Source of the DNA: Isoetes taiwanensis
Taxonomy: Eukaryota > Streptophyta > Lycopodiopsida > Isoetales > Isoetaceae
DNA length: 64,000 bases
NCBI GenBank assembly: GCA_021234155.1
Contig: JAJEKV010000020.1
Location: forward strand, 10,045,172-10,109,171
Direction: 5' to 3'
In this document: positions 413 to 63,760 of the stretch, piece by piece
Position numbering within the stretch: position 1 is the stretch's first letter
Layout: every line of letters begins with the position of its first letter
The notes under the pieces: model-generated
Told to the model about the DNA's origin: nothing
The model's database searches: none
The model's input: the letters and a program-made list of their open reading frames with translations, nothing else
Position numbers and translations under genes: made by a program

Positions 413-470
413 AAGATAAGATAAGATAAGAGTTTTTAACGTCCACGAGAACCCAATTGGGTTATGGGAA
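413..470 (-). repeat. 3' terminus of a microsatellite-tailed LINE, with (TTATC)n tail
   Basis: Read on the minus strand, a short palindromic stretch (ACCCAATTGGGT) is followed by CTCGTGGACGTTAAAAACTC and then a run of TTATC units. The same arrangement recurs near 6.55, 21.95, 63.3 and 63.7 kb, so it is taken as the end of one repeat family. No coding part of the element is recognised upstream of it here. Target-site duplications were not found. Confidence 0.55.
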
Positions 471-1304
471 AAGATGTAGCTAAAAATAAAAAGGGCAATA
501 AAGAAGCTTATATTATTTTAAGGGCTTGTTATTTTTAAACCTAACAAACTTTTAGAACTTTTTTGGTTTACCGTTTTAAGGTCTTATTATTTCGAAACCC
601 ACAAATCTGAAGGTAGCTAGGAGTTTTTGTTGGACAGCTGCTTACATGTCAGAGGATGCCTAGATGAGCTGGGCGATCTGCTTGAGTTGGACAGACTATT
701 GTAGGGGGTGATGTAATTCGTGGACTTAGGGATTTGCTCGATCCTAATAAGCTTGAGCTTCATTGTGCGTGTGCTTGATTCTGGAACATAAATTTTCACT
801 GGCAGATTGTATTGAATTGGTCATAAATTGATTTTATCTGGTTTTCTAGTTATATGCATGGCAGAATTTAGAGTCGCTTTTGGATTCATGCAGCAGAACA
901 AGAAAGAGGAGATGAATGGGAGAGGCTTGGTTACTTTTAGAGCTTAGCCATTCCTGAACAAGCCAGAAGACCTGCAAAAAGCAATATTACAAACTATATG
1001 CGAAATTCATTGTAGTGCAGTAAGCTTTTATGAATATATTGAAACTAAGTCAGGTAGATTGGGCAATTTATTTTTAAGGGCCTCTTTCATTCCTTACTTT
1101 GGAAGATGATGTTATGGTGGTTACGCTTTATTACCGTATGTTGTAACGAAAAAGAATTTGAAATTTTTTGTTTTAGTATGCCATAGTTGCGGTGCCCATC
1201 GTTGATGGGCTAGGTTTGTTAGATGTATAGGGTTAGCTATCTAAGCGTTCAACTTTATAAACAAACGATCAAGTCCAGGGGTGTTGGGCTATAAGGAGTT
1301 GGTG
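471..1304. other. AT-rich spacer, no gene recognised
   Basis: No open frame with domain-like content, no convincing splice signals and no known repeat were seen. The first 412 bases of the window, before the LINE terminus, are likewise unannotatable AT-rich sequence. Confidence 0.5.
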
Positions 1305-1860
1305 TTTTGATATATTGTTATAGGTTTTGCTTGGTATGATGTTCAACCCCATTAGTTACAGTTGTTGGGCATAAGTTCTAAACTTGTACATTGTGTTATA
1401 TCTCTTAATTTTTTCTTTTTCAAGAATGGATTGTTGGCTGTATGGACGTCTCCTTGTCCACTTGTAAGGGGTTGCCTTTTGCATATTGCTAAATTGTTGT
1501 TTATATTGTTATAGGTTGGTTTTTTGATATATTGTTATAGGTTTTGCTTGGTATGATGTTCAACCCCATTAGTTACAGTTGTTGGGCATAAGTTCGTTAT
1601 ATCTCTTAATTTTTTCTTTTTTAAGAATGGATTGTTGGCTGTATGGACGTCTCCTTGTCCACTTGTAAGGGGTTGCCTTTTGCATATTGCTAAATTGTTG
1701 TTTATATTGTTATAGGCTTTGCTTGGTAGAATGTTTAACCCCATTATGAATAGTTAGTGCCCAGTGTTGCTTAAGTTCAAAACTTATAGTTTGTGTTGCT
1801 TTTAATTTTCCTTTTTCAAAATGGAAGTGTTGCTTAAGCTCAAAACTTATAGTTTGTGTT
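1305..1860. repeat. Local tandem duplications (217-bp and 64-bp periods)
   Basis: A block starting TTTTGATATATTGTTATAGG at 1305 is repeated almost identically from 1522, giving a period of 217 bp; the second copy lacks a short internal stretch. A partial third copy starts near 1717. From about 1763 a second, shorter tandem repeat begins (GTGTTGCTTAAG followed by TCAAAACTTATAG), repeated once near 1827. No coding function is apparent. Confidence 0.85.
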
Positions 1861-2267
1861 CTCTTTTTTCAAAATAGGTTTAATAAACTTCATCTTTGAC
1901 TGTAAGGACTCGTCTGCTTGCTTGTTCGCTTGTTTGCACATAGTGCCGAGGTTGCCAATATACATATATGTATTAGCTATTACACGCAATACTATAGAAG
2001 AAGCTATTACACTATACACGCCTATATTGATTTTCCTAAAAGATCATATGTTGCAAACATGCAGCTTTGAGTTTTTATCAGGACCACAAAAAAAAACCAT
2101 AATCAACCTCTAGGACATACAAATTGAAGTTCATCTTGCTTTACAAGAGTGAAATAATCCATGAATAGATCACCACAGCCATCTCCGCTTACCATTTCGC
2201 TTACGGCAACAATAGAAAATTAACAGGCTTTTGGATGTTAACTCAGCCAAGAGTGCAGAACTTGCAG
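1861..2267. other. Spacer downstream of the tandem repeats, no gene recognised
   Basis: An 85-codon plus-strand open frame (1856-2113) crosses this stretch. It starts inside the repeat, has no recognisable motif and is probably fortuitous. Confidence 0.4.
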
Positions 2268-2750
2268 ACCTTATGCATAGCCACCATTAATATTTAATCC
2301 AGAATCATGGCTTCAGACTCGCACAAATTGCAGAAAAACTTAGTCGAAATAAAAAAGGGGAAGAAAGGGAGTTTTTAATGTAATCGATCTGGGCCGAACA
2401 TAATCTGATGTGCAACTCAATTTTGGCATTTACACTTAGCATTATGCACTTGCTTACCTTGTCCAGAACATTCAGGTCAATAAAAAAACTCCAGGATTAA
2501 CCTGAGTGGTTTTTGTACACCTTACGCATAGCCATCATTAATGTTTAATCCAGAACCATGGCTTTAAGATGGAGGACAACACGAAGTTCATCCTTGGGAG
2601 TTGTAGGGACTCGCACAAACTGCAGGAAACCTTAATCTAAATCAAAAAGAAGAAAACAGGGAGTTTTAAAGGTAATTGATCTGGGCCCAACATAATCTGA
2701 TGTGCAACTCACTTTTAGCACTTTCTTCCCTTGATAATCTACTTTCCAAT
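2268..2750. repeat. Tandem duplication covering the last exon of the small minus-strand gene
   Basis: About 2268-2450 and 2517-2750 are copies of each other. Both hold the segment around the stop codon (GCATAGCCA, then ATTAATGTTTAATCCAGAA or its variant), CGCACAAA, the acceptor CTGCAG or variant, and AACATAATCTGATGTGCAAC. The left copy lacks roughly 46 bp from inside the exon, so only the right copy carries the full terminal exon. Confidence 0.75.
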
Positions 2751-3599: not shown

Positions 3600-4140
3600 T
3601 CTGAAATCCTCAAGCTTCTGCCCGACTCATGCAGCCATGGTAGCGGAAAGATCCTTTAAAGCTCTACTATGGCCTCTTCCTATAGGAATCTGATGGCCGC
3701 ATTTTGTATACAGAGCTCTCCCACTCATCATGAGAGTTTAGCACTTGACTCCTAGGAGAAAATGATATCCCTTCCATGCCTAGAGAAATGAAGCAGTGGC
3801 AAGAAATATGGAGTGCCATGCATAATAATCACACAATCTGACCTTAATCGTCCATGTGCTTCTGCAAAAACAATCTTTCAGCAATGGTGCACCAGCTAAG
3901 GCCGCCTTGAAAACCTCTGATTGAACCACTGAAGGAGCAACGACGCACCAACCAAAGCCGACTTGAAAACTTCTGCTTGAACCACTGAATCAGCAACCAC
4001 TGTGTAGCCAAGAAACAGAGGTTACATCGGAAATTACCAAGTAAGAATCGATTAAGATTACAAAAATGGGCCTTTTGAGGCGAGAATTGGCTGCACAGGT
4101 AGAATTCGAGCCATGGCCCGATATCTCCAAAAACCTCTCT
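3600..4140. other. 5' flank of the small minus-strand gene
   Basis: No coding exon is seen. A near-duplicate motif (CAACTAAGGCCGCCTTGAAAAC-like and CCAACCAAAGCCGACTTGAAAAC-like, near 3892 and 3948) suggests a small local duplication. The 5' leader and promoter of the minus-strand gene must lie here. Confidence 0.4.
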
Positions 4141-5138: not shown

Positions 5139-6520
5139 CCAATATATAAAATGTCAAAAAGACCAAAATCACAAATCAGAATCTTCCTAATATGCCCCTA
5201 AAGATCCTCCAAGTTGCGAAAACTAACCTACCTAACTCACTCTAAAAATACTGCGACTTAAATCCGACGTGGCAGTAGTGTGGGGTTCAAGGACGCAAGA
5301 GAAGCGGAAGGAGAGTGGAGGACCGCACAATAGGTGAGCTTTCTTCGTTACAGCCATTTGTCTGTTGCACAGATCTGAAACTGATGGTCTAAGACATGAT
5401 AAATTGTCGAAATTGAACAAGCCATGGATCTGGACTTAGACATAGACATCACAATTGAAGCTTATGCACAGATGCCGCATAGGGTGCTTGTAAAAAATTT
5501 CTGGAATGCAAGAACTGTATCCCTTGAATCATAATTTGCTTTTACGGAATGGACATCTTAAAGCTCACATTTCCACATTGCAAAGGTATGCTTGGGCAAG
5601 ACGGTAGAAGATATCAAGATTGCACGAAGTATGCACACCGCACAATATATAACAGTACAAAAAAGAACAATCTATTTAACATTTACAGGAGACTGCCCAG
5701 GTCTATAAGATCAATCAATACCAATGTGGGACTATACACAGCTAGTCAGATGCCACCTAGAGGCATGTAATTCAGTTAAAACGTAAAATCAAAATGCTGT
5801 CATTCAGCTATCTGCAGAGAGACATATTCTCTTTGAGGTGGATACGGGTAAGCTATTGCTCTTTGAATCACTGATAAAAAGAGACATTATCACTGAGCCT
5901 GCTTAAAATTTATACAGCCTGTTGCATAAGTAGAACACTTCATATTTAAGCATTTGTTGGAGATAAAGTGCTATTTCTGGTTCATAAGCCTCATAAGGTT
6001 AAATTGGCGTGGTCCCAAATAGAGCCTACCTTGTATTTTAAAATGCTGAGCGTCTGAGAAACAAAGTGTTTTTTTTCATAGCTTGCAAATTCCTTTCGAG
6101 TGATTAGTAATTCATCTGAGAGGGTCAAACGAGAGGTGCTGAATTGCCCCATAGTATTGCACTTCATCCTGGGCAGATGAACGATTGAGGAATGGTGCTC
6201 GTGCAACTACATCTTTGGGAAGTTCAGCCATAACTGCTTTAAGTCATGCCAAATAAGGTGTTTTGTCTTTGATGAGAGAGGACAAATAGATCATTTATGC
6301 AAGTCTTCTTAGAAAGCCCATAGGTCTGAAGTTCTATTTATGGGTCCTGGCTTCAACCTGAATCTGTCCATCCACGGACATAAGATTATATCCTTGGCCT
6401 CCCAAGGATTGTTGTATATCATGTCGAATAATCAGGTTTAATTCCAGCTGAGACATGTCAAGGTTGGCAGAGAAAGATGGTAGAAGGGAGTTTAGTATGC
6501 AACCATCATTGTCCAAGGAT
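5139..6520. other. AT-rich spacer, no gene recognised
   Basis: Several 60-75-codon open frames occur on both strands, but none shows a motif, splice context or domain. The stretch next to 6520 is the insertion flank of the LINE fragment that follows. Confidence 0.4.
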
Positions 6521-7260
6521 AAAGAAAGAAAGAAGGAAAGAAAGAAAGGAAGATTTATTAACGTCTACGGAAGACCCAAAGGGTCTATGAGACCATAACA
6601 CATACAATATTTAAGACCTCCAGGAGGAAGCCCTCCTGTTCTCTACCGACAAAAGTACTAATCTAACAGAACTTATAGTAAAAATCTGATCAGGTAGGGT
6701 TTGATGGAAGTAGCCCATTTGTTCCTGTGACTGCTGCAAAGTAATTCATAATACCCCTTTTTTACTTGCTTTGATGCTTGATGCTCGGCCTCTTCTGGAG
6801 GCTTTTTATGTTTTGCAACTGCCGATTGTTTTATCTTCTGAGACAGTGCCAAAGTCACATCTTTAGGGTCAAGATACTTCTTTTTCTGTGATGCGTCCAC
6901 CATCATCTTATCATCATTTGACTCGGATGAAAAGAAATTGGTCATTTTCTGTTTGCTTCAAGCCCATTGTATTCTTTTGTTTGAGTATGTTCTTCCTTTT
7001 TAGGGATATTCATACACAAAGTGAGAGACACATTTGTGATTGTAATATTTCAACAGCTGCCATGGAGATGTGGGGTCTCTAAGAAGACAATGATATCTGC
7101 CTTTAAAAATGTAGTAGGATGGGCAGGTAAAAATAAAATGTTTTTCTGATTCAGCCATGTTTAGATCACACATTTGGCATTTCCGATCACGACTAATATT
7201 GTTCGCCCTACCAACCTCAATCTCCAGCGGTAAGATGACACCCTAAACTGCTACAAAGAG
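6521..7260 (-). mobile_element. 5'-truncated microsatellite-tailed LINE (C-terminus, 3' UTR and tail)
   Basis: Read on the minus strand, 7230-7075 encodes IEVGRANNISRDRKCQMCDL and then ESEKHFIFTCPSYY, a C-x2-C ... H-x4-C zinc-knuckle block typical of the C-terminal end of some LINE ORF2 proteins. A basic 90-codon stretch follows (6945-6673, KYLDPKDVTLALSQKIKQ). Then come a 3' UTR, the palindrome AGACCCAAAGGGTCT, the terminus CCGTAGACGTTAATAAATC and a (TTTC/TTCC)n tail at 6521-6550. The 5' part, including the RT, is missing, as expected of incomplete target-primed insertion. A related C-terminal block lies at 8716-8950. Confidence 0.6.
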
Positions 7261-8073
7261 TATCTCACTTATTTGGCAGTTCACTATCCAAATATCCCGG
7301 CCTTATGATGAAATTATCTGCTGAATATTTAGGAAGATATCCTTATAGCATTTCTTTTTAACAGGCAGATCTTTGACGGGATTTACCCATATGTTTGAGA
7401 CATAAAGCCACTCCAAATCATTGCGTATAAGCTGATGAAATTCTTGCTGAGTAATTCAGATTATCAGCCCTTATCAGCTGATAGAGAAATAGAGAATATA
7501 TCAATGATGCAACTTTAGTGTTGTTGAATCATAAGAACTACCTGGTATATCAAAATAAGAGAGAGACTACCGTCCCTTTCAATATCTGTGGACTATTATG
7601 ACCATGTAGCTTTGTGTATTGATGAACTCACTAAAGTAAGACATATCAAGGAACAGGATATCATTCCCGAATCCTTGACGTTAGAGAGCTGCTTGTAATA
7701 GGGCTGAAAAAGTTAACAGGGCACATTAATTTCAGACTCATTTGTATTTATGCAGAACGAAAAAAATAATAGAATATCACCTTGCGACAGCATTCCTGCT
7801 GCCTGCATGATATATTTGCTTTTCTTTCACATCTTATTTCTGGCTTTGTATTCAATATGTAGACCATCTCCAGCACACCAGTGTTCTTGACCATCTCCAT
7901 TACATAGATTATGTACATATTTTCATTTGGGCATTTCTTCTATCTTTATTTGTGTTCCTAGAAATTACATGTTAATGTGTAATTTCAGTGGACATTTTCA
8001 TATAGTTCTTCGGTTTTGCATGACAAACAGGGTTGGGAGTTCTTGATATCTGACCTCCTTTAGTCAAATTAAG
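7261..8073. other. 5' flank of CABIN1
   Basis: No coding exon is seen. A 5' leader is expected here because the initiator exon at 8074 holds only the start codon. AT-rich tracts with no clear TATA box at a convincing position. Confidence 0.4.
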
Positions 8074-11000
8074 ATGGTAATTCTATTTCTATCTCTGAGT
8101 GATAGATACGGGTACTGACATTGTGGTCTACCACTGGCAGTTTTCAATTGCAGCAATTAATGATACGGATTCATCAAGGAACCACTTGGAACCTTTGGCA
8201 CCTACAAAAGAAGCTCAGGTTTGGCATTTTATCCAAGGGACTTGTCTTAACAACTGGGTAGGGAAGGAAGAAGGAAGGAAGCCTAAAACATACATTGAAT
8301 TTATTTGGGATATTCCTATGAAGTTTTATATGTTCAATCAAGTAAGCACCTTCAGATTGCTCTTTACAAAGTCACCAAGCATCTTATCTAATCTTGGCAG
8401 ATGAGCCTGATGGACTTTATATTGAAGGTTCCAGTGCCGTGTGAAATTTTCATAAACTAGAGTGTTTAATTAAAACGTTAAGCAGGCATGCAGTTCAACA
8501 AGGTAAAAAATGAAATGGCAGACGATGATTAGGCAAGCCTAAGAAAGAACCAGTGCTTTTAATAAAAGTGACGAGCAGGAGAATTTTATGCAAGTTCAAA
8601 ATGCTAGACTGTGAAGTCTAATTGAGAGTTTTCCTGTCCTAGTATGGTTATACATGGAAGATAAGGCATGAAAAGTGCATTATCCACCAAGCATCATAGT
8701 TCTGTCATCTATTTGGATTGCTAACTGATCAGCCTTTCTTGGCCCCATGCTTTTATTATAGAACTTCCCTCCCTCCCTCTCCCATCTTAGTCGGGAGGAT
8801 AGTAATGTTGGAAGAGCATTTCATCTTTTCCTGCCATGCCTATTACATCATAAGAGGGAGACATCATTGTCTCTACAGACATCTAACAACCTTACAGCAA
8901 CTCATGATGTATTATGACCAGAAATGTATATCCTCAAGTTATTCATGAGCTCTATAAGAACAGGAGCATTTTCAAAAGTAGTAACAGCAGCCCTAGTAGC
9001 CCAAAGCAAACAGATTTATTTCTTGTGGACGATGAAGCACACCAGGGTGAACCCCTGAAAAAAGGAAACTTCATGATATTAAAAAGAGTGACACTACGAG
9101 GAAAACCGAACAAAAAAGAAGCATAAGAATTCCTTTCAGCAGAAGAAGAAAAGACAAGATAGAGTTCAAAAAGAGCCACATGCTGATATCAGATCATTCC
9201 TTGGAGCAGCCAGGAAGGAATCTTTCATTGACTTTTGATTGATGTTTTAGTATTATTCCTTTTTAGTGCCTTGGAGGCTTTCATCCTCCTTGCAGATCCT
9301 TTATTCTGTATGTCCTTGGTTTTGTAGATCCTATGGGTCTCCTGTAGACATTAATATATCTTTCTTTCTTTTGTGCTCATTACAGGAATCTCGTCTTACT
9401 CAAATGTATCATGAAGCCTTGTTAAACTTGCAAACGGGGCAGTTCTTGAAGGCCCAACATCTGTTTCAAGGAATTATAGAAGATCCCTTGTCTATACATG
9501 CTCAGGTACAAACAAAATGAAAATACTGCATGAAGCACATGACACCCTAATATTAGATGGAACAATGGGATTTTTGTTATTTGTCTTACTGAAGCTTGCA
9601 ATTACCAATGTGACATCACAGAAGGAGAGCAAAGCAAAATCAAGTTCGATGGTTCACTTGAGGTAATTTTATTGATGTGTAACATAGCCTGCATACTTTA
9701 ATGCGAAAATATTGAGATAAGGCAATCTCTGCAAAAAGAAAATGCTGAAGAGTTGCACTAAATTTGAGTGCCACCCCTTCCTGATAGTTTCATGATAAAT
9801 GGAAGCCAAATCCATGATAACCTGTCATTTCTTTATGGGCAGGTGCATGGCATTTCTGCATGAAAAAATCTCACTGCCTTCCATGACTCAGTCATTAAAT
9901 TGCTTGTTCCAGTTTGTATACTTATGTTACTAGTCTAATGTATTCTGTACGGCTTATTTAAATAAAATAATCTGACCTGTAGCATTTATATGGCTAAAAC
10001 TAATCATAAAACAATGCTTAAGGCGTAAGCCGCTAGTTTGCTTTAATGACACGTGTGCAATTATATATCAGCAGAACTGTCAATGTAACAGGCTGGATAA
10101 AAATCAAATTGAAATGACACCATCATTATGACTTTCAGATTTTTGACATTCAAAAATTTGGCTGAGACATATTGTAAGCATGGGACTGATTATTACAAGG
10201 ATGCCCTGGAATGCTACATTCAGGCCGTCTCAATTGACCAAAAGGATGTTGTGCTTTGGAACCGATTAGGAACACTTGCATCTTCTCTTGGACTTCTAAA
10301 TATTGCCCGTAAAGCATTTGAACAAGGGCTTCAATGCAGCCCACGGCACTGTAAGTTTCTAAGCTCTATGTCAAGTGGTATTTGTAATTTTTGGTATTTG
10401 TATTTTATGCCAATCTGTTGTGCTTCATGGTAGGGATTTGTATGGAGAAGTTAATAGAGGTGCTAATAACAATTGGTGATGAGGCCACATGCCTTGCTGT
10501 TGTGGAACGCCTATTGAAACTTCATCCAACTCATCCTCGTGCTCAAGATGTGAAGCGTGCAATTGTGGGCCGTATAACACAAATTCAGGAAAAGAAAGAT
10601 GGAAAGGCATGCTTTGTCCCTGTGGGTTTAGATGTTCTCGAGCCCAAGCTCACAACTCTGCCTTCTTTTAGGAAAAGGAAAAACGAGAATCCAGACTCAG
10701 TACTAAGTGTACGTAAGAGGAGGGCAATACAAACTCTTGAAATATCCTTGACAACATTATCATGGTTTTCTCTTGTAAAATCCATTTTGCATGTAATAGA
10801 AGAACAGAATAATAATCAGACTTTGTTAAATGACGGTAGTCAGAGTGAAAAGTCACATCATCTTCAGGAGCTAATACCATGTTTAGCAAACGTTCCATTG
10901 AAGTTCTTATTGCCAAGGTCTCAATCGTCTGGTAACCAGATAAGCTGTTCAATGTCTTCGAATTTTGATTGCAGCAGTACTGAAGTCTCACGTGCACATG

Positions 11001-21947: not shown

Positions 21948-21986
21948 CCCGTGGACGTAAAAATTTATCGTATCTTATCTTATCTT
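21948..21986 (+). mobile_element. Extremely truncated LINE terminus inserted in the Copia fossil
   Basis: Plus-strand CCCGTGGACGTAAAAATTTA and a following TATCT run match the terminus-plus-tail of the microsatellite-tailed LINE family. Both flanks are Copia integrase sequence. Only about 25 bp of element plus tail were inserted. This shows that the terminus is mobile and that it arrived after the Copia element. Confidence 0.6.
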
Positions 21987-37925: not shown

Positions 37926-38401
37926 AGCCCACTTACCAGCCCAAAATCACAGTTCTTAAACAGAGATGATTTGAACCTATTATTTCTCTTAAGTTCTTGG
38001 AATAGGTAGTGACTATGTATATTAGGTTCCCACCTTAAGACAATAACAAGAGCCTTTGTATTGATCATAAAAGGATTATCACATGAAACTGCCTAAATAC
38101 AGGAATAGCTGGAGCAATAACAGAGCTCGTGGTGCAGCTCCAATCAGCCCGAAATGAAAAATGAGCCCGTGCCTTTACTATAAATGTAGATCCCAGTTCC
38201 AATCTATATGCACATATCTTATACAAATACAGACCAAAACAGAAGCCTATCCAGGCCATATTTCTGATACAAAACAGTTGGAAACCAAAATCTGAAGTGC
38301 TGCTACTAATATCAAGTATAGGAGGTACAGACCTGATTTTTGTTGCAGTTATATCAGTACCCTTCTAGACTCGAATGTTTCTGTCTAAACACCCCAGCCC
38401 A

Positions 38402-40773: not shown

Positions 40774-40873
40774 AAGGTCTTCTTCTGCCACAGTCCAAGC
40801 TTCCCATGCCTAACCGAATCCAAAAGGTCTTCTTCTGCCACATTCCAAGCTTCCCATGCCTAACAGAATCCAG
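40774..40873. repeat. 50-bp tandem duplication at the 5' end of LINE A
   Basis: AAGGTCTTCTTCTGCCACA and the following CCAAGCTTCCCATGCC occur at 40774-40823 and again at 40824-40873 with a few differences. It lies where the LINE A 5' UTR should be. Tandem monomers in a 5' UTR can carry promoter activity in some LINEs; here only two copies exist. Confidence 0.8.
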
Positions 40874-40900
40874 TGTCCCCTTCTACAAGGGGACCAATAG

Positions 40901-47290: not shown

Positions 47291-47305
47291 GACACTGCCA
47301 AAGGT

Positions 47306-48445: not shown

Positions 48446-49011
48446 ATGATAAAGTCTATCAAAATGATTACTTGGAACCTCCAAGGGATAAATAATAGTA
48501 TCAAAAGGGATAGACTTAAAGTTTGTCTTTCTAACCTTTGCCCTGACATTCTTTTTATCTAGGAACACAAGATCCATGATCCCAATCATGAAAGGATTAT
48601 TTCTAATATTCTTCCTCCTAATTATAATATTTGGTCCATTGTTGCTAACAATTCGTCTGCAGGTATAGCCATAGCATGGAGTCAGAAGATTAACATGGAA
48701 GATATTTATATGGTCAATGACACCAATGGAAGATGGCAGACTCTTGTCGGTAGTATAAATTCATGCAAAATTGCCTTTACTAATGTCTATTCTTACCATG
48801 AACCTTCAGAGAGATCTATGATGTGGAGTAGAATCAACAGCAGTTTGAGCAATCTGGAAGTGGAGGAATGTGTTATATGTGGAGATTTCAACATGGTCAC
48901 AGATAGATTTATGAAAAATAAGAAATTCAGGAATCTTCTTCCTCAGGAAAGATGTGCATGGGACAACCTTCTCTCTTCTCATAATTTAACCTTGGCCAGA
49001 ACCAAACCCCA
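48446..49011 (+). pseudogene. LINE B ORF2, endonuclease part
   Basis: Starts MIKSIKMITWNLQGINN. It contains the EHK catalytic glutamate motif (an in-frame TAG sits just before it at about 48560), NVYSYHEPSERSMMW and the catalytic CGDFNMVTDRF. The frame stops where LINE C is inserted at 49011; the remaining endonuclease motif TISDHYP lies at about 54755 beyond LINE C. The APE-type endonuclease nicks target DNA for target-primed reverse transcription. Confidence 0.8.
48999..49011 (+). repeat. Left target-site duplication of LINE C
   Basis: GAACCAAACCCCA, identical to 54621-54633. It marks the insertion point of LINE C in LINE B. Confidence 0.9.
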
Positions 49012-52000: not shown

Positions 52001-54620
52001 TCAGGTTGACTAAGGGCAAAAAGGATTGTTTTCAAGAGCGAGGTTGCTTTTGAGTCTAATATTGTGAAGGAGGACTTAAAAGCAAATTGTGGCTCTCTTT
52101 GAAAAGGGATAAATGCCCGGTCTTGATGGCTTTCCTATTGAATTCTTTCAGAAGTCTTTGGACTGGTTGGAGGATGACATATATGATGCCTTTTGTGAGT
52201 TTCAGAGATTTAGGAGCCTTGATAAGATTTTGAATACAAAGTTGTATCTCTCTCATTCCAAAGAACAAGGAACCCAAGACTATTTTCGACCGGGTGACCT
52301 ATTACATTGCTTTCCTCCACAGGTACAAGATCTTTGCTAAGGCATTGGCGAAAAGAGTCCGGAGACATCTTGGCCGACGCTATCTCACAACACAATCCGC
52401 TTCCCTCGCCGTTGTATTCTCAACAACGTATCGGCCAGATATGAAGGAATATATTGGGTCCTAAGCATGGTCATAGAGCGTGTATCTTGCTTTGATTTTG
52501 CTAAAGCCTACGATTATAGTGTTGATTGGGGCTTTGGAGAAGTGTCTTCTTGCACTTGGGTTTGGGGAGTCATTCACAAGGAATGTCATGAAGCTCCATA
52601 CATCAGCCGATTCCATTGGGCCCTTTCCTGCATGCAGCCATCGGATATTTTTTGTAGTGGGTAGAGGAATTCGGAAGTGGTTGTCCCTTAGCACCCCTTG
52701 CTTTTCACAATTGTGGCGAAGTCTTGTCCCAGCCTCTTCTCCGGTGGCTACCCAAGATGGCGTTATTCAAGGCCTCCCAATGGACGATGGTTCTCAAGAG
52801 GTATGTAAACCAATATGCCGATGACACTTTTTTTGTTCCTAATTGCCGAAAGGGGTCGAGAATCTACGTAATGCTAAGCTATTATTAGACACATTCTCCT
52901 TAGCATCGGGGAGTTCTTGTAGGTGGCAAAAATGTACGCCTTTGTGGACGTTGGACAGTCCCATCCCTCCCCAGATTTTGACTATCCTTGGAAGATTCTT
53001 TCTCGCATGGCAATACCACAAAGTTGCTTGGTATCCCGCTTGGAATTCATGTCTACGTCGGATGCTTGGGATGAAATCATTAGTGGGTTGCAAAAGCACT
53101 TGTTTTTGGTGGAATACGCCTAAACTTTGTCCATGCCCTAGAGAATCACCGTGGCTAAATGTGTTCTTAGTAATACTCATGTCTACATGGCGTCTCGCTT
53201 TACTAGCTCGCAGTTGTAAGATGGAGGAGATTGTGCGTGTATCGTCGAAATTTTATTTGGGGTGGAAATGAGTTAGGAGCAATTGGTCAAGGTAGCTTGG
53301 GCTTAAAATGCATTAGACCTAAGGCAAATTTGGTGGTCTTGGTATGTTGGATTTTCACCTCCAAAGCAAGGTAATGATATCAAAGTTCATTTGGAGGATT
53401 TTCATTGGTAAGGATGATTCTCCTGGCCTGAGGTTGTTGGTGCAGTCGATTCAGCATTGTCTCCCCATTTCATAAGGCCTCCATTAAGCCCCTCCTTCCT
53501 TGGGCTTTGCTTTATCATATCGTCCAGTATCCTAATGCTTCTCCCTTTCTAAAGGGGTTGCTTGCGGCTTGGGACAACCGGGGTCTTTTTCCATATTAAC
53601 TCTGAGGCATGTCTTCGTTGTCCACTCCATCTTTGGTGGATTCCTTTGCGGTGACACTCCAGAATGTGCCTCTAAGTGTGGTTGTTCATCCAAAGACACA
53701 ACGACGATGGGTAGCAGCTGGTATCAATACTATTGCGGCTTGGTATAAGTCCGATCATCTCATGTCATGGGAAGCATTTAGAACAAAGTTCTTGTTGTAC
53801 GATGGGACAGAGTAACTGAATCATATTGTCGCATTGTTGCCACAGATTCCGGGGTCCACGATTGAGGTAGTCATATGGGGTTGCCATGGGATATCCAGCC
53901 AGGCGGTTTGTGTCTCCTCGTGTATAAATTACTTGTGCATTCTGAAATCCGCCTCCATCTAATAGATGGCATCTTAGTCCCTCGACCACAATGGAAAAGT
54001 GTTTGGATATGGGTATGGGATAGCCGCTTCACCCCAAAGTAGTAGTTTTGTGGTGGCAAGTGATCCATAGATGCCTCGAGTCAGCGTGTTAGTCCATAAA
54101 ATGGATAATCGGATTGAGCTACGCCCTTTATGCCAAAGAAAGGGTTGAGAGTATTGAGCATTGTTTTTCTTTGTGAGAGGCTTCGCGAGCATGGTCTTGG
54201 TTGTTGACCCTTTTTGGCATCGCCTCGATCTAGCCAAAAATTTTGCTTTGCTATCTATCCCGATGTTTGGCCCAAACAACTAAACGAAGCTTTTCATCTC
54301 GCATGTGGTCGGCTTTTATGGTCAATCCTGGAAGAGAAGGAGGTTGTTTATCTTTAAGGGCATAGATACCGCAGATGAGGTTGTTCTTCGCTGGGCTAAG
54401 ATAAAAATTGTTATGGCTTACAATTGTTCTTCTCTTGATCAAGAGAAGAAAGTAATCGATCGGCATACTTACCTTGATTCATTCTTTTGCATATAAAAGG
54501 TGGTTGTGCTTTCCGGTTGGATCGGTTTGTCCACTGGGGTTATAATCCTGTCTTTGCATTTATGTTGCTCGTTTCTAGTTGGTGAATAAAGCTTGACGTC
54601 CTTCAAAAAAAAAAAAAAAA
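49012..54620. mobile_element. LINE C: twin-primed, 5'-inverted L1-type LINE nested in LINE B
   Basis: Flanked by identical 13-bp duplications and ending in AATAAA (54585-54590) and poly(A) (54605-54620). The right part, about 51715-54620, is in plus orientation: linker and RT (KCPGLDGFPIEFFQKSL-like about 52115; QYADDTFFVPNCR about 52810) and a zf-RVT remnant (about 54130-54220). The left part, 49012 to about 51715, is inverted: on the minus strand it runs from a 5' UTR-like start (CCCTAGGGTTTCTC, about 51680) through an ORF1-like stretch (50660-50268, SIPNLPPDLLVRSF) to the endonuclease (GLINVYAHNRPRRC about 49480; GDFNMVE about 49395; SDHNP-like about 49110). This order is what twin priming produces. 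Both halves are frameshifted. Confidence 0.85.
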
Positions 54621-54633
54621 GAACCAAACCCCA
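54621..54633 (+). repeat. Right target-site duplication of LINE C
   Basis: GAACCAAACCCCA directly after the poly(A) run; identical to 48999-49011. LINE B coding sequence resumes from here (AFSWSDHRIDPICCLHDRYY). Confidence 0.9.
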
Positions 54634-57590
54634 AGCCTTTAGTTGGTCTGACCATAGAATAGATCCTATCTGTTGCCTCCATGATAGGTATTACCTAAGT
54701 GAAAATCTGTGGAACAGCAGCAACAGGGTTGAAAATCTTGAAGGTTACACAATCTCTGATCATTATCCCCAGTAAATTATCATATCCGGGGATGACAATG
54801 GCAATAAAAGAAAAGCCTACTTCAAAATGAATACAAGTTTGATGGATAATGATGATTTCATGGTCAAGCTTGAGGAAATCATCAAAGGAAATCCCAAGCC
54901 CATTGGGAACACAGGCTGGATGTACTGGTGGATTGACATGGCCAAACAAATAAAATGTTGGCTCAAAGAATGGGGCAAGAATATTTACAATCAAAATAAA
55001 GCTCATCTTCAGAATTTAAGACAAAGCATTATTACAGCAAGTGATGAGCAAAAAGTGGAGATAAAAAGGCAGATTGAGATGGAGGAAATCAAAATTGCAA
55101 AAGGATGGAAATAAAAGAGTTAAAGGAAGACGAGAGATGCAACTCCAAATACTTCTTCAATAAGGCCAGATTCAGAATCAAGAGGAATCATATTTATGAG
55201 GTCATGGTGGAAGAAAATTTAATTTCTGAAGATAAAGACCTCAAACAAGCTGCAGTTGATCATTTCAAAAAGCTTATGGGCTCCAATATGGATTCTACTC
55301 CCATGGTTATGGAGGAGTTCATTTGTCTAAACAAAAAGGTCAATGATGATCAGAACTCATATCTTACTAAACCTTTTGTGAATGATGAGCTTTTGCAGGT
55401 TGTCAAAAATATGGAAAATGGCAAGACCCCTGGCCCTGATGGCCTTCCAGCAGAATTCTTTAAAAAGACTTGGCCCTTACTTGGAGATAGTATCACCAAA
55501 ATGGTCAACGAGTTCAGGGAGACAAAGATTTTGGATGCAAGAATTAATACCAGTTTTATTGCATTAATTCCTAAGATTGATTCTCCTAACACCTTCTCGG
55601 ATTACAGACCTATTTCTCTTTCTAATGTTATATACAAGATTATTTCAGGAGCTATTGCCTTGAGACTTAAGACCATTTTAGACATCATTATTAGTAGTTC
55701 TCAATCAGCCTATCTCAAAGATAGGTTTATTTTGGACAATGTGGTAACAGCTATTTTGGGACTCCAATGGGCAAAAGATTCTAACCAAGATGTGGCTCTT
55801 CTAAAACTCGACATCACCAAGGCTTTTGATACAGTAAGTTGGAATTTTCTATTTAGATGTTGCAGGGCTCTTGGTTTCAGCAATGAGAGCATTCAAATAT
55901 TTGAAGCCATTCTGCACAACTCAAGATCAGCAGTTCTCATCAATGGTGAGTGCAGTCCATTCTTCACAATCCAAAGAGGCGTAAAACAAGGTTGCCCTCT
56001 CGCCCCATTCCTTTTTTTGATTATTATGGAAGCTCTCCATTGTAGGCTGGAGGTAGCAAAGAATACTAACCTTATTAAAGGTCTAAGGCTCCCTGAAAAT
56101 CCTCAGGCAGATCAAATTCTAAACGGGCATTTTGCAGATGACACCTTTATTTTAATCTCAATGGATGAAAATTCCATTACAAATGCTCAAGTATAACTCT
56201 CCCAGCACTAGTTCAAAAATCCTTGGTATCCCCTTTGCAATCAGAAGCAATGTTTCCGATCTTTGGGGAAATCATTATTGAAAAGTTCTACAAAAAGGTT
56301 GATACTCTGAACTCAAAATATCTTTCTAAAAATGGTAGGGCAATTATTGCTAATTTTATGATTTCTTCTTCTCATGTGTATCAATCATCAGTTATTCTTG
56401 CTCCAAAAAAGATTTCTAACAAGTTGCAGGGTATTATTGGTAGATTCATTGCTTGTGGGCAAAACAGAAGATGCTTGCACCTGGTCTCAATGAAAGAGTG
56501 TTGCAAATCAAAAAGTAATGGAGGATTGGGAATTATTAATATTGAGAAGCAAGGGATGGCCTTGGCTGCTAAATACTTCTACAGGGCCTGCTATAACTCC
56601 ATCAAGCATCCTATCTCCATTCTGATAAGGCACTATATTGGTAAATGCCATCCTTATGGGTGGAGATATCTGAAAATGGAGCTTCCCCACTCGATCTTCT
56701 TCCCCTTTACTGTCCCAAACTCCACTCCAGGTATTATCAAGAAATGGATCAAGGCTTGGGATCAAATCAAGGGGATGTACACTTGGAAAGAAGGATTGTC
56801 CATGGATCAAACTATTTTTTGGAATCCAGCTGTCCTTCTCAATAACCCCAATCTCTGCCTGGCTTGCCACTTTCCTGATCAGGCCAGGCTATGGAAGAGT
56901 AAAGGAATCATCTTCATCAGGGATCTTTTTGATATTAATGGCATTATTCCCTTTGACAATTCTATTTTGGCAGAGGAAGGAAGCAGACCAGAACCCTTTA
57001 TGAGAACATCCTTACTGCCATCAATCATAACCATTGGACAAATGAAGAGAATTCCTGGCTAAATGATGGACAAGATGGTTATACAGTCAGGAGAGCCTAT
57101 AATTATCTCATGAAGGGAGAAAAATTCACTATCCATACAAAATGGGAGGTTCAATCGGATAGATGCATCAAGAATCTGAGGTTTATGTGGAAGAGCCCCA
57201 TCAATCCGAAGATCAAATCATTTATGTGGCAATTATGGCATACTAACTCGAAAAGATACAGGTTATCCATGGCCAATTCAGATATCTGTAAAAGATGCCT
57301 TGGAGCAAAGGAAGATGAAAATCATCTTTTTAGAGGATGCCTTTGGTCCGAGTGTAGAGCTTGCCTCAGGAATCCTGGACTATGATTTAATTCAACTCAG
57401 TGAGAAAGACTTTTTAATGCCAGAGAACCCCAATGATTGGAGAATCTTTGTCCTCCTTTGGAGGATCTGGAAGGGCAGGAATTCCTTCATTTTTAATTGT
57501 GAAATTATTCCACTAGAAGGAATAATTAAACAGTTTCAATTTGATGTTAAGTGGATTCAAGAGATTAATGGTTGATTCTATGATTGCAGG
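54634..57590 (+). pseudogene. LINE B ORF2, remainder (RT and zf-RVT)
   Basis: Continues with TISDHYP and a linker, then the RT segment 55105-56196: GKTPGPDGLPAEFFKK, FIALIPKIDSPNTFSDYRPI, LKLDITKAFDTVSW, GVKQGCPLAPFLFL, and the catalytic box as HFADDTF rather than the usual YADD. Segments 56223-57062 (NGRAIIANFMISSSHVYQSS, GGLGIINIEKQGMALAAKYF) and 57110-57385 follow; the latter is the zf-RVT block with CKRCLGAKEDENHLFRGC. Frame changes occur near 55105, 56200, 57080 and 57330. The phenylalanine in the catalytic box is tolerated in many non-LTR enzymes. Confidence 0.85.
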
Positions 57591-57894
57591 TACTTTATTT
57601 CTGCTGGTGCGCAAACTTAAATGGAGGAAGATGGATCTAAACACGAACAACGAATGGATAAAAATATTCGGGGCAGCCAAAGTGTTGGAGCATATGGAAC
57701 AGTGTCGATGTGGATGCTGTTGTGACCAGAACTACAACATCAGAAGGGAGTTAATCTGCCAGGCAAAAGATAGCAGGGGCCGGTTCAACATGGCTAAGGC
57801 AAAATCATGTATGTGCATCTATTGCACTTTTCATGAGACGACAAAAGGAAAGGCAAGGAAAACCAAGAATTTCAATCTGAAATCTTACCACTGA
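57541..57894 (+). CDS. Cysteine-rich open frame at the 3' end of LINE B
   Basis: A 117-codon frame overlaps the end of ORF2 in another frame. Its second half has the cysteine cluster EQCRCGCCCDQNY and later CMCIYCTFHETTKGKARKTK. It could be the true C-terminus of a frameshifted ORF2 or a chance frame. The CxCxCCC and CxCxxC spacing is not one I recognise as a known zinc finger. Confidence 0.25.
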   Translation: MMLSGFKRLMVDSMIAGTLFLLVRKLKWRKMDLNTNNEWIKIFGAAKVLEHMEQCRCGCCCDQNYNIRRELICQAKDSRGRFNMAKAKSCMCIYCTFHETTKGKARKTKNFNLKSYH

Positions 57895-58492
57895 GTGCTC
57901 TCTCTATTCCGAAGATACAGACTCTTTTTAAAACTAGCAGGTTTCTTATAAGTATTTATCAGTTTCTCTGTATGAACAAGTAAAGGTCGATCCCTGATAT
58001 AAGATCAGGTTCTTTTTGGATCACCTTTCTATTTTAGGGTTCCTTCTCCCTTGAAAAAGGAGTTTTTGTAAAATCTCTTACTTATATATATAGAGGCCTT
58101 CAATTAAAACAAGGTGCTGCGCACGGAGGGTTGCCCTCTGATAGCCCGAGAGTGTGTTTTCATGTTTCTTGTTGTCGCTTTCATGGTTTTTGTTGGGTCA
58201 TTTGATTTGTTGGGGTTATTAATGGTTTAAACAGGGGGTTTTGTTTTGTGCTTATGACTTGAGATCCCTGACATGAGATGTTTATTATTTTTTTGGCCAT
58301 GCTTTACATACCTTGAAGACAATTCCATGAAGAAAAGAGGTTTTAATAATAAATTGAGCTGCAAAATAACTTTTGCTATTGAACTTAATAATCTGCACAA
58401 AGTTTAGGACTCAGGGGAAGCATTCTAGAATCTGTTCGCTTCAAATGCTTCTAATGTATTTGGTTCACAGTTGTCATCTGTTCTGTTGACAG

Positions 58493-58741
58493 GATCATCC
58501 TTACCTTCACAAGCCATCGTTCTTGATACATCCATGCGGTACTTCTGAGCTAATGAAACTAATTTTATCGACATGGCTTGGTTCAAGTGCTTCTAATGAG
58601 GAAGGAGGAAGATTTTGCATGATGGGAATGAATATCGATTGTGTCCATGATGTCAAGGAAGTAATTATGCATCGGTATTTATTTGACAACCTTATAGCAC
58701 TAACAATTCACCAACTCCAGTATCTGCGCAATTCAAGTTAA
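58493..58741 (+). CDS. ATG10: ATG10-like C-terminal exon (autophagy E2 enzyme), apparently orphan
   Basis: After a good acceptor (TTGACAG at 58486-58492), an 82-codon exon runs to TAA. It begins DHPYLHKPSFLIHPCGTSELM. Plant ATG10 proteins have a closely similar block (HPxLxxPxxxLHPCGTxxWM) in which the Cys of HPC is the catalytic residue that carries ATG12 before its transfer to ATG5. The usual Trp after the motif is Leu here, and the downstream part (SWLSVVGQVVGL-like in the family) is not recognisable; instead the exon ends in unrelated sequence. No upstream ATG10 exons were found; a 10.9-kb LINE cluster lies just upstream. It may be a diverged terminal exon, a pseudogene fragment, or one exon of a gene with very long introns. 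Confidence 0.5.
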   Translation, partial: DHPYLHKPSFLIHPCGTSELMKLILSTWLGSSASNEEGGRFCMMGMNIDCVHDVKEVIMHRYLFDNLIALTIHQLQYLRNSS

Positions 58742-58816
58742 CACTCAACTACTTATGCGTGGCAACGCCGTGCGCAATTCGAGTTAACACTCGACTACTT
58801 ATGCGCGGCATCGCCG
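58725..58816. repeat. 46-bp tandem duplication at the end of the ATG10-like exon
   Basis: TGCGCAATTC followed by AGTTAACACTC and ACTACTTATGCG begins at 58725 and again at 58771 with few differences. The stop codon of the exon lies in the first copy. Confidence 0.85.
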
Positions 58817-60725: not shown

Positions 60726-60746
60726 TTACAAAATCTATCTATCTAT

Positions 60747-62353
60747 CTATCTAATTTTTGCAACCGGGCCAAAATTACCAAAAGCAGGATCAAAACTAGA
60801 AACACACTGCGCCGCTGTTGCAAAGGATGAATCCGAGCTTTTCCAGACTGTAGAATTATCCGATGCTTTCAAATTAATGCCCCCATCGTTAAATTGCTGA
60901 TAAGTCGCTCCCTGCATGTTAGTATTCCATTTTATGACGGAAGCAACCAAGATCTGCAAATCCCCTGTACAATTAAGCAACAGAGTAATTTTTGCCCTCA
61001 GATTTGCCGATATATTTTGTGCAAAAAAAAAACCTTAAATTGCCTTCACTCCTTGAGATCAGTGGAAATTAATATGAATCGACAACATAACTAGCAGAAA
61101 ATATAACTATGTTATTCATGCATGCAACAAAACCCTACAACCGTTACCTTTGTGGACGCTTTGCTCTATCATTGTAGATACAATGTTTAGCAGCTTGCTC
61201 TTGTTCATGCTCACTAAGAAGGTCGGGTGAATGTATCATAATTAACCAAGATCCCCGCCATAACAATGGAATTATTAAGCCCGGAAATTACAGTGCTACT
61301 TATCTACAAAGATAGTCAAAGGACTCCAAACCTACTTTCATCTCCACAAAGGGAAGAGGAGAGCGGAAATTCTGAAGAACATCTTGATGTTTGTAAGGGA
61401 AGTTCTCACTGGAAATTAGAAGTGTGACATCCACAAGAGACATTGTTCAGATTATTTGGAACCAAAAATTGAAAAGGAAAACCAAGGTAAGTGAACTAAC
61501 AGTGGCACATTCTTAGCATTTGCATTGTCAAAAGGCATCCCATCAGCTTCTGGGTGCTTCATAACTTGCTTTGTTTTTTCCTTTCCTCATGATGACATGC
61601 GCTCCATACGCTTCATACTCTTTATTATCAAAATGATGTGAAGTTGCTTCTGACTCTGGTTCCAGGGCTACCAGTTGCCTGATCAAGACACTTCCCAGGC
61701 CAATCTCTACTGCCATTAGTGGAGGCTTACAATCCATAAGTAGACCATCACTAGATGGACATGTCACAGATGAGACCTCTGGCTCTTCAAATGCTATCAG
61801 ATTTTGTGTTATTTTTTCTGATGAAGCACGAGCCCTAAACATAGATGTGCATTTGCGAGAAGGAACAAGTGTCTCCATGAAGGGCGCAGTCATCCATTTG
61901 TTGCAAAGCCTGCAACGCATTTGAATGAAAACATTTTTTGATCAAACAATTCAAACCAAATCTGAGCTAAATACGAGTGAGGTTTTCAAGGGTTACACAC
62001 CATCTTGGCAAGAACAAACGGCTGTAGTGTCGGAACTAAAGCTTGAAAAATGTATGAGCATACTTGAAGTTGGCAAAGGCAAGGAGGCAAGAATCATGCA
62101 AATGGGAATACAGTTAGTATTCCATTTTATGACAGAAGCAACCAAGATCTGCAAATCCTCTGTAGAATTAAGCCGATATGTTTACCCAAGGTGAAGACCA
62201 TGTAACCCTCGCAGTCTCATCGCTATCATCCTCGATCTGAATCCAAGCATTTCCTACAGTTGCTACCAAGCTCCTTTTTGGCCATCTCTGTTTCGATCCA
62301 GTTTGCATTGCTCTGTTTTGAATCCAAACTTGCACCAATTTTGCCGCTTTCAA
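60747..62353 (-). CDS. Candidate minus-strand exons of an unidentified gene
   Basis: Three minus-strand segments look like exons. 62353 to about 62186 encodes SLVATVGNAWIQIEDDSDET and ARVTWSSPW before a GTAAAC donor. 61909 to about 61543, after the acceptor GTTGCAG, encodes LCNKWMTAPFMETLVPSRKC and later MAVEIGLGSVLIRQLVALEP. 60967-60747, after the acceptor TTGTACAG, encodes DLQILVASVIKWNTN and ends FGPVAKIR-stop. The frame around 61915 reads CRLCNKWMTAP, which resembles the C-x2-C-x-KW core of CW zinc fingers, but the acceptor would cut through it and the remaining CW residues are not evident. Phases between the first two segments match only with a weak donor. I cannot name the protein. Confidence 0.35.
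60918..60978. repeat. Duplicated exon start, copy 1
   Basis: About 61 bp (GTTAGTATTCCATTTTATGA ... AATTAAGC) repeated at 62113-62173 with about four differences. On the minus strand both encode DLQILVASVIKWNTN behind an acceptor-like TACAG. Confidence 0.85.
62113..62173. repeat. Duplicated exon start, copy 2
   Basis: Second copy of the 61-bp segment at 60918-60978. Homology stops soon after the coding part, so only the acceptor and the first 15 or so codons are shared. Confidence 0.85.
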
Positions 62354-62395
62354 GTATTATAGCATTGAACTTTCAAGTATTATAGCATTGAACTA
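62347..62395. repeat. 23-bp tandem duplication
   Basis: TTTCAAGTATTATAGCATTG plus AAC occurs twice in direct succession. Confidence 0.85.
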
Positions 62396-63300
62396 TAAAA
62401 CCAGAAAGCCCACTGCTATCAAAGCTTTGATTAAGCCTGCGACCGCCATAGCTGCGGGAGCAAGAAGTACCGGTTAGCCGGTTTCGCTAGGGGCTGACAA
62501 ACAACGTAATTGACCGAGAATTTACAGCCCATAATGAATTTGAAGCAGTTATTGACATATTCTGGGTATATACTGGTATATACCTAGAATGTGCCACAAA
62601 CCCACATAAACAAGGGTTTGCCCCCTAGGGGCAACCCAAAAAGAGATATTCACACTATTAGATCAATGTGTCAACAATAGTAATGGGGTCCGATAGGCTG
62701 TCCACTGTCTCCAATGATATTTGGCCTATATATTGATTTGTTTGAGGATTGACTTGCTGGACATGGGGGGTGGTGCAGTTCAACTCATACACCATATCAT
62801 TCGGCAGCTCATATTTGCTGAGGATGTGGATCCCTTAGCTTACATCTCGGCTACATGTAGCAACATCTGGATGCCTGGATACTTACTACCAGCCCACTGT
62901 CATGCCAGGTCTAGAAAGAGGATGAAATTGATATGCCAATATTAAAATTGATGTGCCAAAAAGCATTCCTCTAAAACAACATTGAAAAATCTTCCCTGTC
63001 TCTTTCCTACTCATCCCCCCTTTATTTCATCTATCCTTCATTCTCTCTCTTGCCTTCTCCCCCATACTGCCCACCCAACGATTTGCTTTGAGCTTGTTAA
63101 ACTGCTAGTTTAAAATGATATTTGAAATTGACGAGCACCCCAAAATTGAAGATGCCCACCACAGGACCAGAGGTTTGTTGATTTGACAGTAAGTCAACGT
63201 CTTGTCCTTCACGCCATGCAGTCATGGAGAATTATCAAGAAAGTGAAGCGGCAGAATTCGAATTGAAATTACAAAGAAAATAGAGGAGGTGTCAAAACAG
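62396..63300. other. Repeat-bearing spacer, no gene recognised
   Basis: Holds the partner (62545-62597) of the short dispersed repeat at 5096. The phrase TTGATATGCCAATATTAAAA near 62928 is similar to text just after the 5.1-kb copy, suggesting a longer shared element. No coding exon seen. Confidence 0.4.
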
Positions 63301-63350
63301 GTAGAATAGAATAGAATAGAATTGAATTTTATCGTCCAAGTGGACCAGAA
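63301..63350 (-). repeat. Microsatellite-tailed LINE terminus, (TTCTA)n tail
   Basis: On the minus strand GGTCCACTTGGACGATAAAA is followed by TTCAATTC and a TTCTA-type run (63301-63322). It fits the shared terminus (GTGGACGTTAAAAA) and has the short palindrome GTCCACTTGGAC. A second TTCTA run lies at 63379-63405. Confidence 0.45.
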
Positions 63351-63690
63351 GCAAGAAGAGCTAGAAGCCAGAACTAAAGAATAGAATAGAATGGAATAGA
63401 ATAGAAAGAGAAAGGAACAAACCAATGGCCAAGGAGTATATTCTGGAGCAGAAGACAGTAAACTGAATTATGTCAATGCAAGAATTATCTACCTCGTTGA
63501 TGAGGTCGAGGTTTCAAGAGAGGTATTGGCCCTTGATTAAAACATGAATTCTAGAATTAAATCATATATATGTGCCTAGGCCATATATAGGCAGTGGAAA
63601 CACCCACATATAGCCCACAGGTTCCCATTATGCACACCAAACTGACTTCACACAAATTATCAAACGATAAGTGAATCCATAAAGAGTAAT
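63351..63690. other. Spacer between two repeat termini
   Basis: Contains a second GAATA/TTCTA run and no recognised gene. Confidence 0.3.
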
Positions 63691-63760
63691 AGATGGATAG
63701 ATAGGTAGATAGTACTTTTTATGTCATACGACATGGCATCCCCCATAGGGACATACAGAG
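63691..63760 (-). repeat. Microsatellite-tailed LINE terminus, (CTAT)n tail
   Basis: On the minus strand ATGTCGTATGACATAAAAAG is followed by TACTATCTACCTATCTATCC. The layout (palindrome, GACATAAAAA-type terminus, tetranucleotide run) matches the other four copies, though the sequence is the most diverged of them. Confidence 0.35.

What the first reader, a model, noticed from the sequence alone, without database searches (positions are those of the whole stretch)
413..63760. LINE family with a conserved terminus but a different microsatellite tail in each copy
Five places (413-470, 6521-6590, 21948-21986, 63301-63350, 63691-63760) share a terminus close to CCGTGGACGTTAAAAA, in four of them preceded by a short palindrome whose letters differ (ACCCAATTGGGT, AGACCCAAAGGGTCT, GTCCACTTGGAC, TGTCATACGACA). 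Each copy then has its own 4-5-bp repeat: TTATC, TTTC/TTCC, TATCT, TTCTA, CTAT. A changing palindrome with conserved pairing looks like a selected RNA hairpin for RT recognition, and the changing tail suggests that the enzyme templates or slips new repeats at each insertion. The 6.5-kb copy ties the terminus to a LINE C-terminus. Plant LINEs described to date are mainly poly(A)-tailed L1 and RTE types, so this could be a poorly described clade.
Basis: partly seen in the sequence, partly recalled or inferred. Interest (0 to 1): 0.75.

Follow-up and report, generated by a model that had tools for sequence, protein, structure and literature searches.

The report
Plant LINE with repeat-slippage 3' tail
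Several truncated copies of one jumping-gene family share the same 3' end, a small hairpin plus a nearly fixed 14-base ending, and carry short repeat tails that look like slippage on one shared seed; it is a modest but real addition to what is known of plant LINEs.

Summary
The missed copy is a second LINE C-terminus whose 3' end matches the 6.5-kb copy. The locus at 63301-63350 is weak; 63691-63760 is not supported. The palindromes do not differ freely: the three copies that show one carry the same ACCC...GGGT hairpin, with one two-sided pair change, one wobble and one broken outer pair. The tails are not different in each copy: 413 and 21971 share (ATCTT)n, 6521 and 9359 share (CTTT)n, and three of the four have TCTT directly after the terminus. 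The copy at 21948 is a 38-bp insert in a copia gene; taking it out restores the reading frame. Best reading: a LINE with stringent-type 3'-end recognition whose reverse transcriptase slips on a short repeat. This kind is known (UnaL2, monocot L1, algal LINEs), but such a pyrimidine tail is unusual for land-plant LINEs in the review passages read. The clade could not be placed: no RT of this family and no whole genome were available.

The parts
413..463 (-). c1: 5'-truncated copy. Hairpin AACCC-AATT-GGGTT 450-463, terminus GTGGACGTTAAAAA 433-446, linker and tail (ATCTT)n 413-432
6521..7242 (-). c2: LINE C-terminus (zinc-knuckle ORF piece 7003-7242), 3' UTR, hairpin AGACCC-TTT-GGGTCT 6572-6586, terminus GTAGACGTTAATAA 6555-6568, tail (CTTT)n with CCTT variants 6521-6553; 5' end not determined
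   Evidence: (zf-RVT E 0.003, 18.6 bits, below the 27.5-bit cut-off)
   Evidence: 70 of 92 nt identical at the 3' end; 56% over 41 aa to c2, E 1.75e-14
21948..21985 (+). c3: 38-nt insertion in a copia-type gene: terminus 21951-21964 and tail (ATCTT)n; target-site duplication ATCT, extendable to CTWATCT with one mismatch
   Evidence: removing 38 nt restores the copia frame
63302..63350 (-). c4: possible diverged or truncated copy, terminus TTGGACGATAAAAT 63326-63339, array (ATTCT)n 63302-63325; the same array lies on the other side at 63378-63406
   Evidence: weak
   Evidence: searches do not list it; membership not supported

Best explanation
The loci are 5'-truncated copies of one LINE (non-LTR retrotransposon) family, or of its close subfamilies, that share a 3' end: a 5-6-bp hairpin, a linker, GTRGACRTWAAWAW, then a repeat built on (A)TCTT. 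Shown: two copies carry a homologous LINE-type C-terminal coding piece; four share the terminus; three share the hairpin; one is a 38-bp insertion with a short target-site duplication and a reconstructible empty site. Inferred: the family's reverse transcriptase recognises the hairpin and terminus on its RNA (stringent-type recognition), starts target-primed reverse transcription in the short 3' repeat, and slips there. Slippage in steps of four (TCTT) or five (ATCTT) bases then gives two tail types from one seed, and early arrest gives very short copies such as the one at 21948.
For: c2 and c6 are homologous in coding piece and 3' end (local alignment 183 against a maximum of 128.8 in 100 shuffles). 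Terminus scores of c1, c2 and c3 exceed every simulated score. Six of 48 arrays have the terminus upstream against 0.12 expected, 3 of 45 without the arrays that match by construction. Both ATCTT arrays (2 of 2) and all CTTT arrays (3 of 3, at two loci) among the 24 period-4/5 arrays listed are tails of this family. c1, c2 and c6 agree in TCTT right after the terminus. Removing 38 nt at 21948-21985 restores the copia frame through GPINIKRLGKQYFITFIDDHS.
Against: No RT domain, full-length element or genome-wide set was available. Pfam zf-RVT on c2 is below its cut-off, and the c6 piece has no Pfam hit. c6's terminus alone is at chance level (9.5, 13 expected), and one chance stretch at 57401 ties with c2 for the c1 query. 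Folding z-scores are -1.76, -3.58 and 0.05 for c1, c2 and c6. Random 30-mers have a Watson-Crick stem of 5 or more bp in 8.5% of cases and 6 or more in 2.9%; by that strict count c6's best stem is only 3 bp. A search for target-site duplications found none for c1, c6 and c5 at its threshold, only array-like matches for c2 and c4; c3's overlaps the tail. c1 and c3 could be SINE-type copies; their link to the LINE is by the terminus (and for c1 the hairpin) only.
Confidence: 0.7

Rival explanations
1. The tails are made anew from the target at each insertion: reverse transcriptase or repair copies target bases repeatedly, so every copy has its own repeat (a stronger form of the reader's idea).
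For: c3: the target CCCTAATCTTTTAATA resembles the tail (ATCTT)n. c4: the same ATTCT array lies on both sides.
Against: c1 and c3 share one unit, c2 and c6 share another, and TCTT after the terminus is shared by c1, c2 and c6. The resemblance at c3 is also expected if the RNA tail chose the target by pairing. c4 is a weak member and may sit in a pre-existing microsatellite.
Confidence: 0.12
2. The family inserts into pre-existing microsatellites, so the arrays are target, not tail.
For: c4 is flanked by (ATTCT)n on both sides. A CCTT-rich stretch lies about 1.7 kb upstream of c2's 3' end.
Against: c3's target is readable copia coding sequence without a repeat. The search found no array-like match upstream of c1 and c6; the one upstream of c2 (about 8270) lies beyond the host exon at 8141-8218 and so is hardly c2's own flank. 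The 5' ends of c2 and c6 are not known.
Confidence: 0.05
3. Tails began as one simple repeat and diverged after insertion by replication slippage, so tail type says nothing about retrotransposition.
For: Microsatellites mutate fast (recalled); c2 mixes CTTT and CCTT units. Post-insertion change of SINE tails is described in PMC12941198 (passages).
Against: The same unit recurs in independent copies, which random drift would not favour. It can act together with the best explanation.
Confidence: 0.15
4. Some of the short copies (c1, c3, perhaps c5) are SINEs that borrow the LINE's 3' end.
For: They lack recognised coding sequence. Shared LINE and SINE 3' ends are described for maize, tobacco and Chlamydomonas (PMC3747384, passages).
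Against: ARAGORN and Rfam (gathering threshold) find nothing in the window. c3 is too short to tell. c5 does not have the terminus.
Confidence: 0.15

Closest known systems
L1 lineage 'monocot 1a' and LINE1-1_ZM with ZmSINE2/3 (Ohshima; review PMC3747384, passages read)
   Same: Plant LINE with a conserved 3' end and a hairpin whose stem letters vary with compensatory changes; proposed stringent recognition
   Different: The reported conserved letters (CGAG after the stem, UCU in the loop) are absent here; the tail is (A)TCTT repeats, whereas the partner SINEs listed end in (T)n and nearly all flowering-plant L1 families in (A)n; the c2 C-terminus does not match that of the minus-strand L1-like LINE of this window
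UnaL2 (L2 clade), as described in PMC3747384 (passages)
   Same: A stringent-type LINE that ends in short repeats (TGTAA) thought to take part in template slippage
   Different: Animal L2 clade, another repeat; clade relation untested
Green-algal RandI, RTEX and L1 LINEs and SINEX elements (Tables 2 and 3 of PMC3747384, passages)
   Same: Non-A tandem-repeat tails, including (CTTT)n for SINEX-2_CR
   Different: Algal; no sequence compared here
Aedes SINE with changing tails (Tu et al. 2004; title seen in reference lists; paper not held)
   Same: Tail units that vary between copies, attributed by its title to slippage retrotransposition
   Different: Mosquito SINE; no sequence compared here

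Membership tests
LINE (non-LTR retrotransposon), any clade | Coding capacity of LINE type next to the 3' end | tested here: inconclusive
   Two homologous C-terminal pieces; c2 matches zf-RVT at E 0.003 over 28 residues, below the curated cut-off, and c6 has no hit; no RT seen
LINE (non-LTR retrotransposon), any clade | 5' truncation, 3' repeat tail, target-site duplication | tested here: met
   c3: 38-nt insert, terminus, tail, ATCT duplication, frame restored on removal; no clear duplication for the others
Plant L1 clade | RT domain groups with L1 | not testable with these tools
   No RT of this family in the window; no plant collection on hand
Plant L1 clade | Poly(A) tail (224 of 233 flowering-plant L1 families in Table 3 of PMC3747384) | tested here: not met
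   Tails are ATCTT or CTTT repeats
Plant L1 clade | C-terminal zinc region like plant L1 | tested here: inconclusive
   c2 against the C-terminus of the minus-strand L1-like LINE: E 53; the two L1-like LINEs of the window against each other: 1e-8; c2 was not compared with the plus-strand one
Plant RTE | (TTG)n or (TTGATG)n tail (PMC3747384) | tested here: not met
   Tails are ATCTT or CTTT repeats
Stringent-type LINE 3' end | Hairpin close to the 3' end, kept across copies | tested here: met
   c1, c2 and c6 keep 5, 6 and 6 pairs, one of c6's being G-U; fold z-scores are strong only for c2
Stringent-type LINE 3' end | Covariation of the stem | tested here: inconclusive
   One two-sided change and one wobble in three sequences; one broken outer pair in c1
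Stringent-type LINE 3' end | 3' end required for retrotransposition | not testable with these tools
   Needs an assay
Monocot 1a L1 hairpin | CGAG after the stem and UCU in the loop (PMC3747384) | tested here: not met
   Loops AATT, TTT, TAT; linkers CTC, TCC, CCT (read)

The most novel reading that the evidence does not exclude
A land-plant LINE lineage outside the described plant L1 and RTE groups, with stringent hairpin-guided 3'-end recognition and a pyrimidine (A)TCTT tail grown by register slippage in steps of four or five bases; the type of tail so far tabulated for green algae would then have persisted into land plants.
Probability: 0.25. Interest if true: 0.55.

Novelty: new member of a known kind. 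Interest (0 to 1): 0.36.

Why it matters
If confirmed genome-wide, it would give a land-plant LINE with sequence-guided 3'-end recognition and a tail in which reverse-transcriptase slippage can be read step by step, and would bear on whether stringent recognition is ancestral in green-plant LINEs. It would also explain part of the tetra- and pentanucleotide microsatellites of this genome as LINE tails.

Tried and rejected
Rejected: palindromes that differ freely (the supported copies that show one have the same one, the one at 63301 includes the terminus itself, 21948 has none, and 63691 is not a member). Rejected: a different tail in each copy. Considered and left open: c5 as a SINE. It has a B-box-like stretch seen by eye, but ARAGORN and Rfam gave nothing, and the self-comparison gave no match below E 0.05 for it. 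Also left open: a weak terminus-like stretch at 27541-27554 (+), same score as c4, 26 nt before an (ATGC)n array at 27580, outside the range of the joint test. Led nowhere: viral contigs with the c2 peptide (13 stretches matched a pattern, none confirmed), with the c2+c6 alignment (none confirmed) and with the RT of the minus-strand L1-like LINE (none confirmed); exact DNA patterns in viral contigs and genome contigs (0 matches each); PDB sequences with c2 (two matches, best E 0.3, unrelated proteins). These collections are of viral, bacterial and archaeal contigs or solved proteins, so absence there means little. The blastn part printed nothing and was repeated with other gap costs. A text search for the terminus letters gave 15 papers, judged from titles and abstract starts to be unrelated. 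Paper searches for a plant LINE with such tails or hairpin: (20 of 1,411 listed); nothing closer than PMC3747384 was seen in the rows listed. The passages of PMC10473749 and PMC3160391 added nothing on such ends.
Full report
Observation. The five places were read directly. Matches to GTGGACGTTAAWAA with up to 3 mismatches are only mildly in excess (15 against 8.87; 3 of 100 shuffles reach 15), so the motif alone proves little. Scanning both strands with a 22-nt terminus by gapped local alignment gives 17.5 at 6521-6600, 15.5 at 401-480 and 15.5 at 21921-22000, against a maximum of 11 in 384 kb of first-order Markov sequence. 63321-63400 and 27521-27600 reach 11 (2.3 expected per window), and the 9.3-kb copy 9.5 (13 expected). 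The place at 63691-63760 is in none of the lists. With hairpin and terminus of the 6.5-kb copy as query the 9.3-kb copy scores 23 and the 413 copy 15 (simulated maximum 13); with those of the 413 copy, the 6.5-kb copy scores 15, but so does a coding stretch at 57401-57480 (simulated maximum 14).

A missed copy. The minus-strand reading of 6500-9900 shows a related stretch at about 9284-9371 on the plus strand. blastn joins it to the 6.5-kb copy over 92 nt (70 identical, E 1e-11) and again over 131 nt in the coding part (92 identical, E 2e-9). At protein level 41 residues are 56% identical (E 1.75e-14). A local alignment of the two regions scores 183 against a mean of 109.4 and maximum of 128.8 in 100 shuffles; it does not fix the 5' ends. 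So two copies of a LINE C-terminus with the same 3' end exist, one on each strand. c2 has a weak zf-RVT match (E 0.003, 18.6 bits, cut-off 27.5) and c6 none.

Terminus and arrays together. Of 48 strand-wise period-4/5 arrays (24 arrays, both sides), 6 have a terminus with at most 3 mismatches in about 34 nt upstream, against 0.12 expected from 40,000 random positions of the same window. They are c1, c2 (two arrays), c6, c3 and c4. The two motifs used are those of c1 and c2, so these three arrays match by construction; the independent ones are c6, c3 and c4, 3 of 45. The null includes the true places, which makes it slightly conservative, but motifs and range were chosen after seeing the copies.

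Hairpin. c1, c2 and c6 align over 40 nt with 21 invariant columns; the tool's alignment is ungapped and puts c1's stem one base out of register, so pairs were counted in structural register by hand in a script. The stems are AACCC/GGGTT, AGACCC/GGGTCT and AGATCC/GGGTCT. Outward from the loop, pairs 1, 2 and 4 are constant; pair 3 is C-G in two copies and U-G in c6; pair 5 is A-U in c1 and G-C in the other two (a two-sided change); pair 6 is broken in c1. A Watson-Crick stem of at least 5 bp occurs in 8.5% of random 30-mers and of at least 6 bp in 2.9%; c1 and c2 reach 6, c6 only 3 by that strict count. Fold z-scores are -1.76, -3.58, 0.05, -0.39 and -1.42 for c1, c2, c6, c4 and c5. So a shared hairpin is plausible and conserved by descent, but three sequences cannot show selection for pairing.

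Tails. Reduced to rotation-free units on the element's strand, c1 and c3 are both ATCTT, c2 and c6 both CTTT, c4 is ATTCT and c5 ATCT. Of the 24 arrays listed, 2 of 2 ATCTT arrays and 3 of 3 CTTT arrays (two of them at c2) are tails of this family. Directly after the terminus c1, c2 and c6 agree in TCTT; c3 has TTTATCG and then TATCTT. I infer that a short templated seed is expanded by slippage in steps of four or five. With two copies of each type this rests on few events. c4's unit also lies on its other side at 63378-63406 and once elsewhere in the window (4798, opposite strand), so its array may be target or an ordinary microsatellite.

The shortest copy. c3 lies in a copia-type gene (gag_pre-integrs 28.2 bits against a cut-off of 28.4, zf-CCHC above its cut-off). 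Removing 37 nt does not restore the frame; removing 38 nt (21948-21985) gives one frame through GPINIKRLGKQYFITFIDDHS and on to a stop further downstream. The duplicated target is ATCT, or CTWATCT with one mismatch, and it overlaps the last tail unit, so its exact length cannot be fixed. The resemblance between target and tail can mean priming by pairing with the RNA tail or, less likely given the shared tails, tail growth from the target. For the other copies a search for duplicated flanks found none at its threshold for c1, c6 and c5, the array itself for c4, and for c2 only a CCTT-rich stretch 1.7 kb away.

Relation to known elements. In the passages read of PMC3747384, one monocot L1 lineage has a conserved 3' end with a hairpin whose stem varies with compensatory changes, CGAG after it and UCU in the loop; neither is present here. 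Its Table 3 gives, of 233 flowering-plant L1 families, 224 with (A)n, 0 with other repeats and 9 with none; (TTG)n or (TTGATG)n for RTE; and various other repeats for green-algal L1, RandI and RTEX. Table 2 has (CTTT)n for the algal SINEX-2_CR. PMC9033089 (passages) describes plant LINEs as L1 and RTE with (A)n and (GTT)n. Variation of tails by slippage is named in the title of Tu et al. 2004 (reference lists only; not held) and cited in PMC12941198 (passages). So hairpin-guided recognition and slippage tails are known kinds; the combination in a land-plant LINE with an (A)TCTT tail was not in the listings seen (searches named in Tried and rejected). That the host is a land plant rests on LINEs with DUF4283, copia genes and the host gene named under Noticed in passing; the plant restriction of DUF4283 and the gene name are recalled, and no call names the organism.

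Clade. c2 does not align with the C-terminus of the minus-strand L1-like LINE (E 53), while the two L1-like LINEs align with each other (E 1e-8). This suggests, but does not show, another clade. No RT of the family was available and no related locus could be fetched.

Verdict. A real LINE family with a shared 3' end and what looks like a slippage tail; a new member of a known kind, of moderate interest, with the clade question open.

Noticed in passing
window 8141-8218 and 9386-9520, LINE tail 9358-9371: The c6 LINE copy lies in an intron of a host gene that resembles plant CABIN1-like genes (name recalled); its CTTT tail ends 14 nt before the end of the acceptor AG (9385) and may serve as the polypyrimidine tract. 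Joining the two exons reads through for 70 codons.
   Followed up: partly
window about 32150-39743 (-) and about 47267-58130 (+): Two large L1-like LINEs, each with DUF4283, RT and zf-RVT pieces and several frame breaks; an endonuclease piece was scanned and found only in the minus one. By eye the minus one ends in an A/AAAT-rich tail, unlike the family studied.
   Followed up: partly
window 36715-36909 and 37474-37680: Two related tandem duplications of a 105-bp unit, between the ORF1-like and endonuclease pieces of the minus-strand LINE.
   Followed up: no
window 17961-18063, 46850-47013, 40774-40872, 58725-58816, 3889-3997: Several two-copy tandem duplications of 46-83-bp units with 84-95% matches, spread through the window.
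   Followed up: no
window 63690-63830 (-): A stretch with stacked hairpins (GGGACAT..ATGTCCC, TCCC..GGGA, ATGTC..GACAT) before a (CTAT)n array; perhaps an unrelated SINE-like element.
   Followed up: partly
window 60733-60753: A pure (ATCT)5 array with no terminus within 5 mismatches on either side; an ordinary microsatellite for comparison.
   Followed up: yes
window 27541-27595: A weak terminus-like stretch (3 mismatches) 26 nt before an (ATGC)n array; could be an old copy or chance.
   Followed up: no
window 516-548 and 574-605: A 33-nt imperfect direct repeat (82% identity) upstream of the c1 copy.
   Followed up: no
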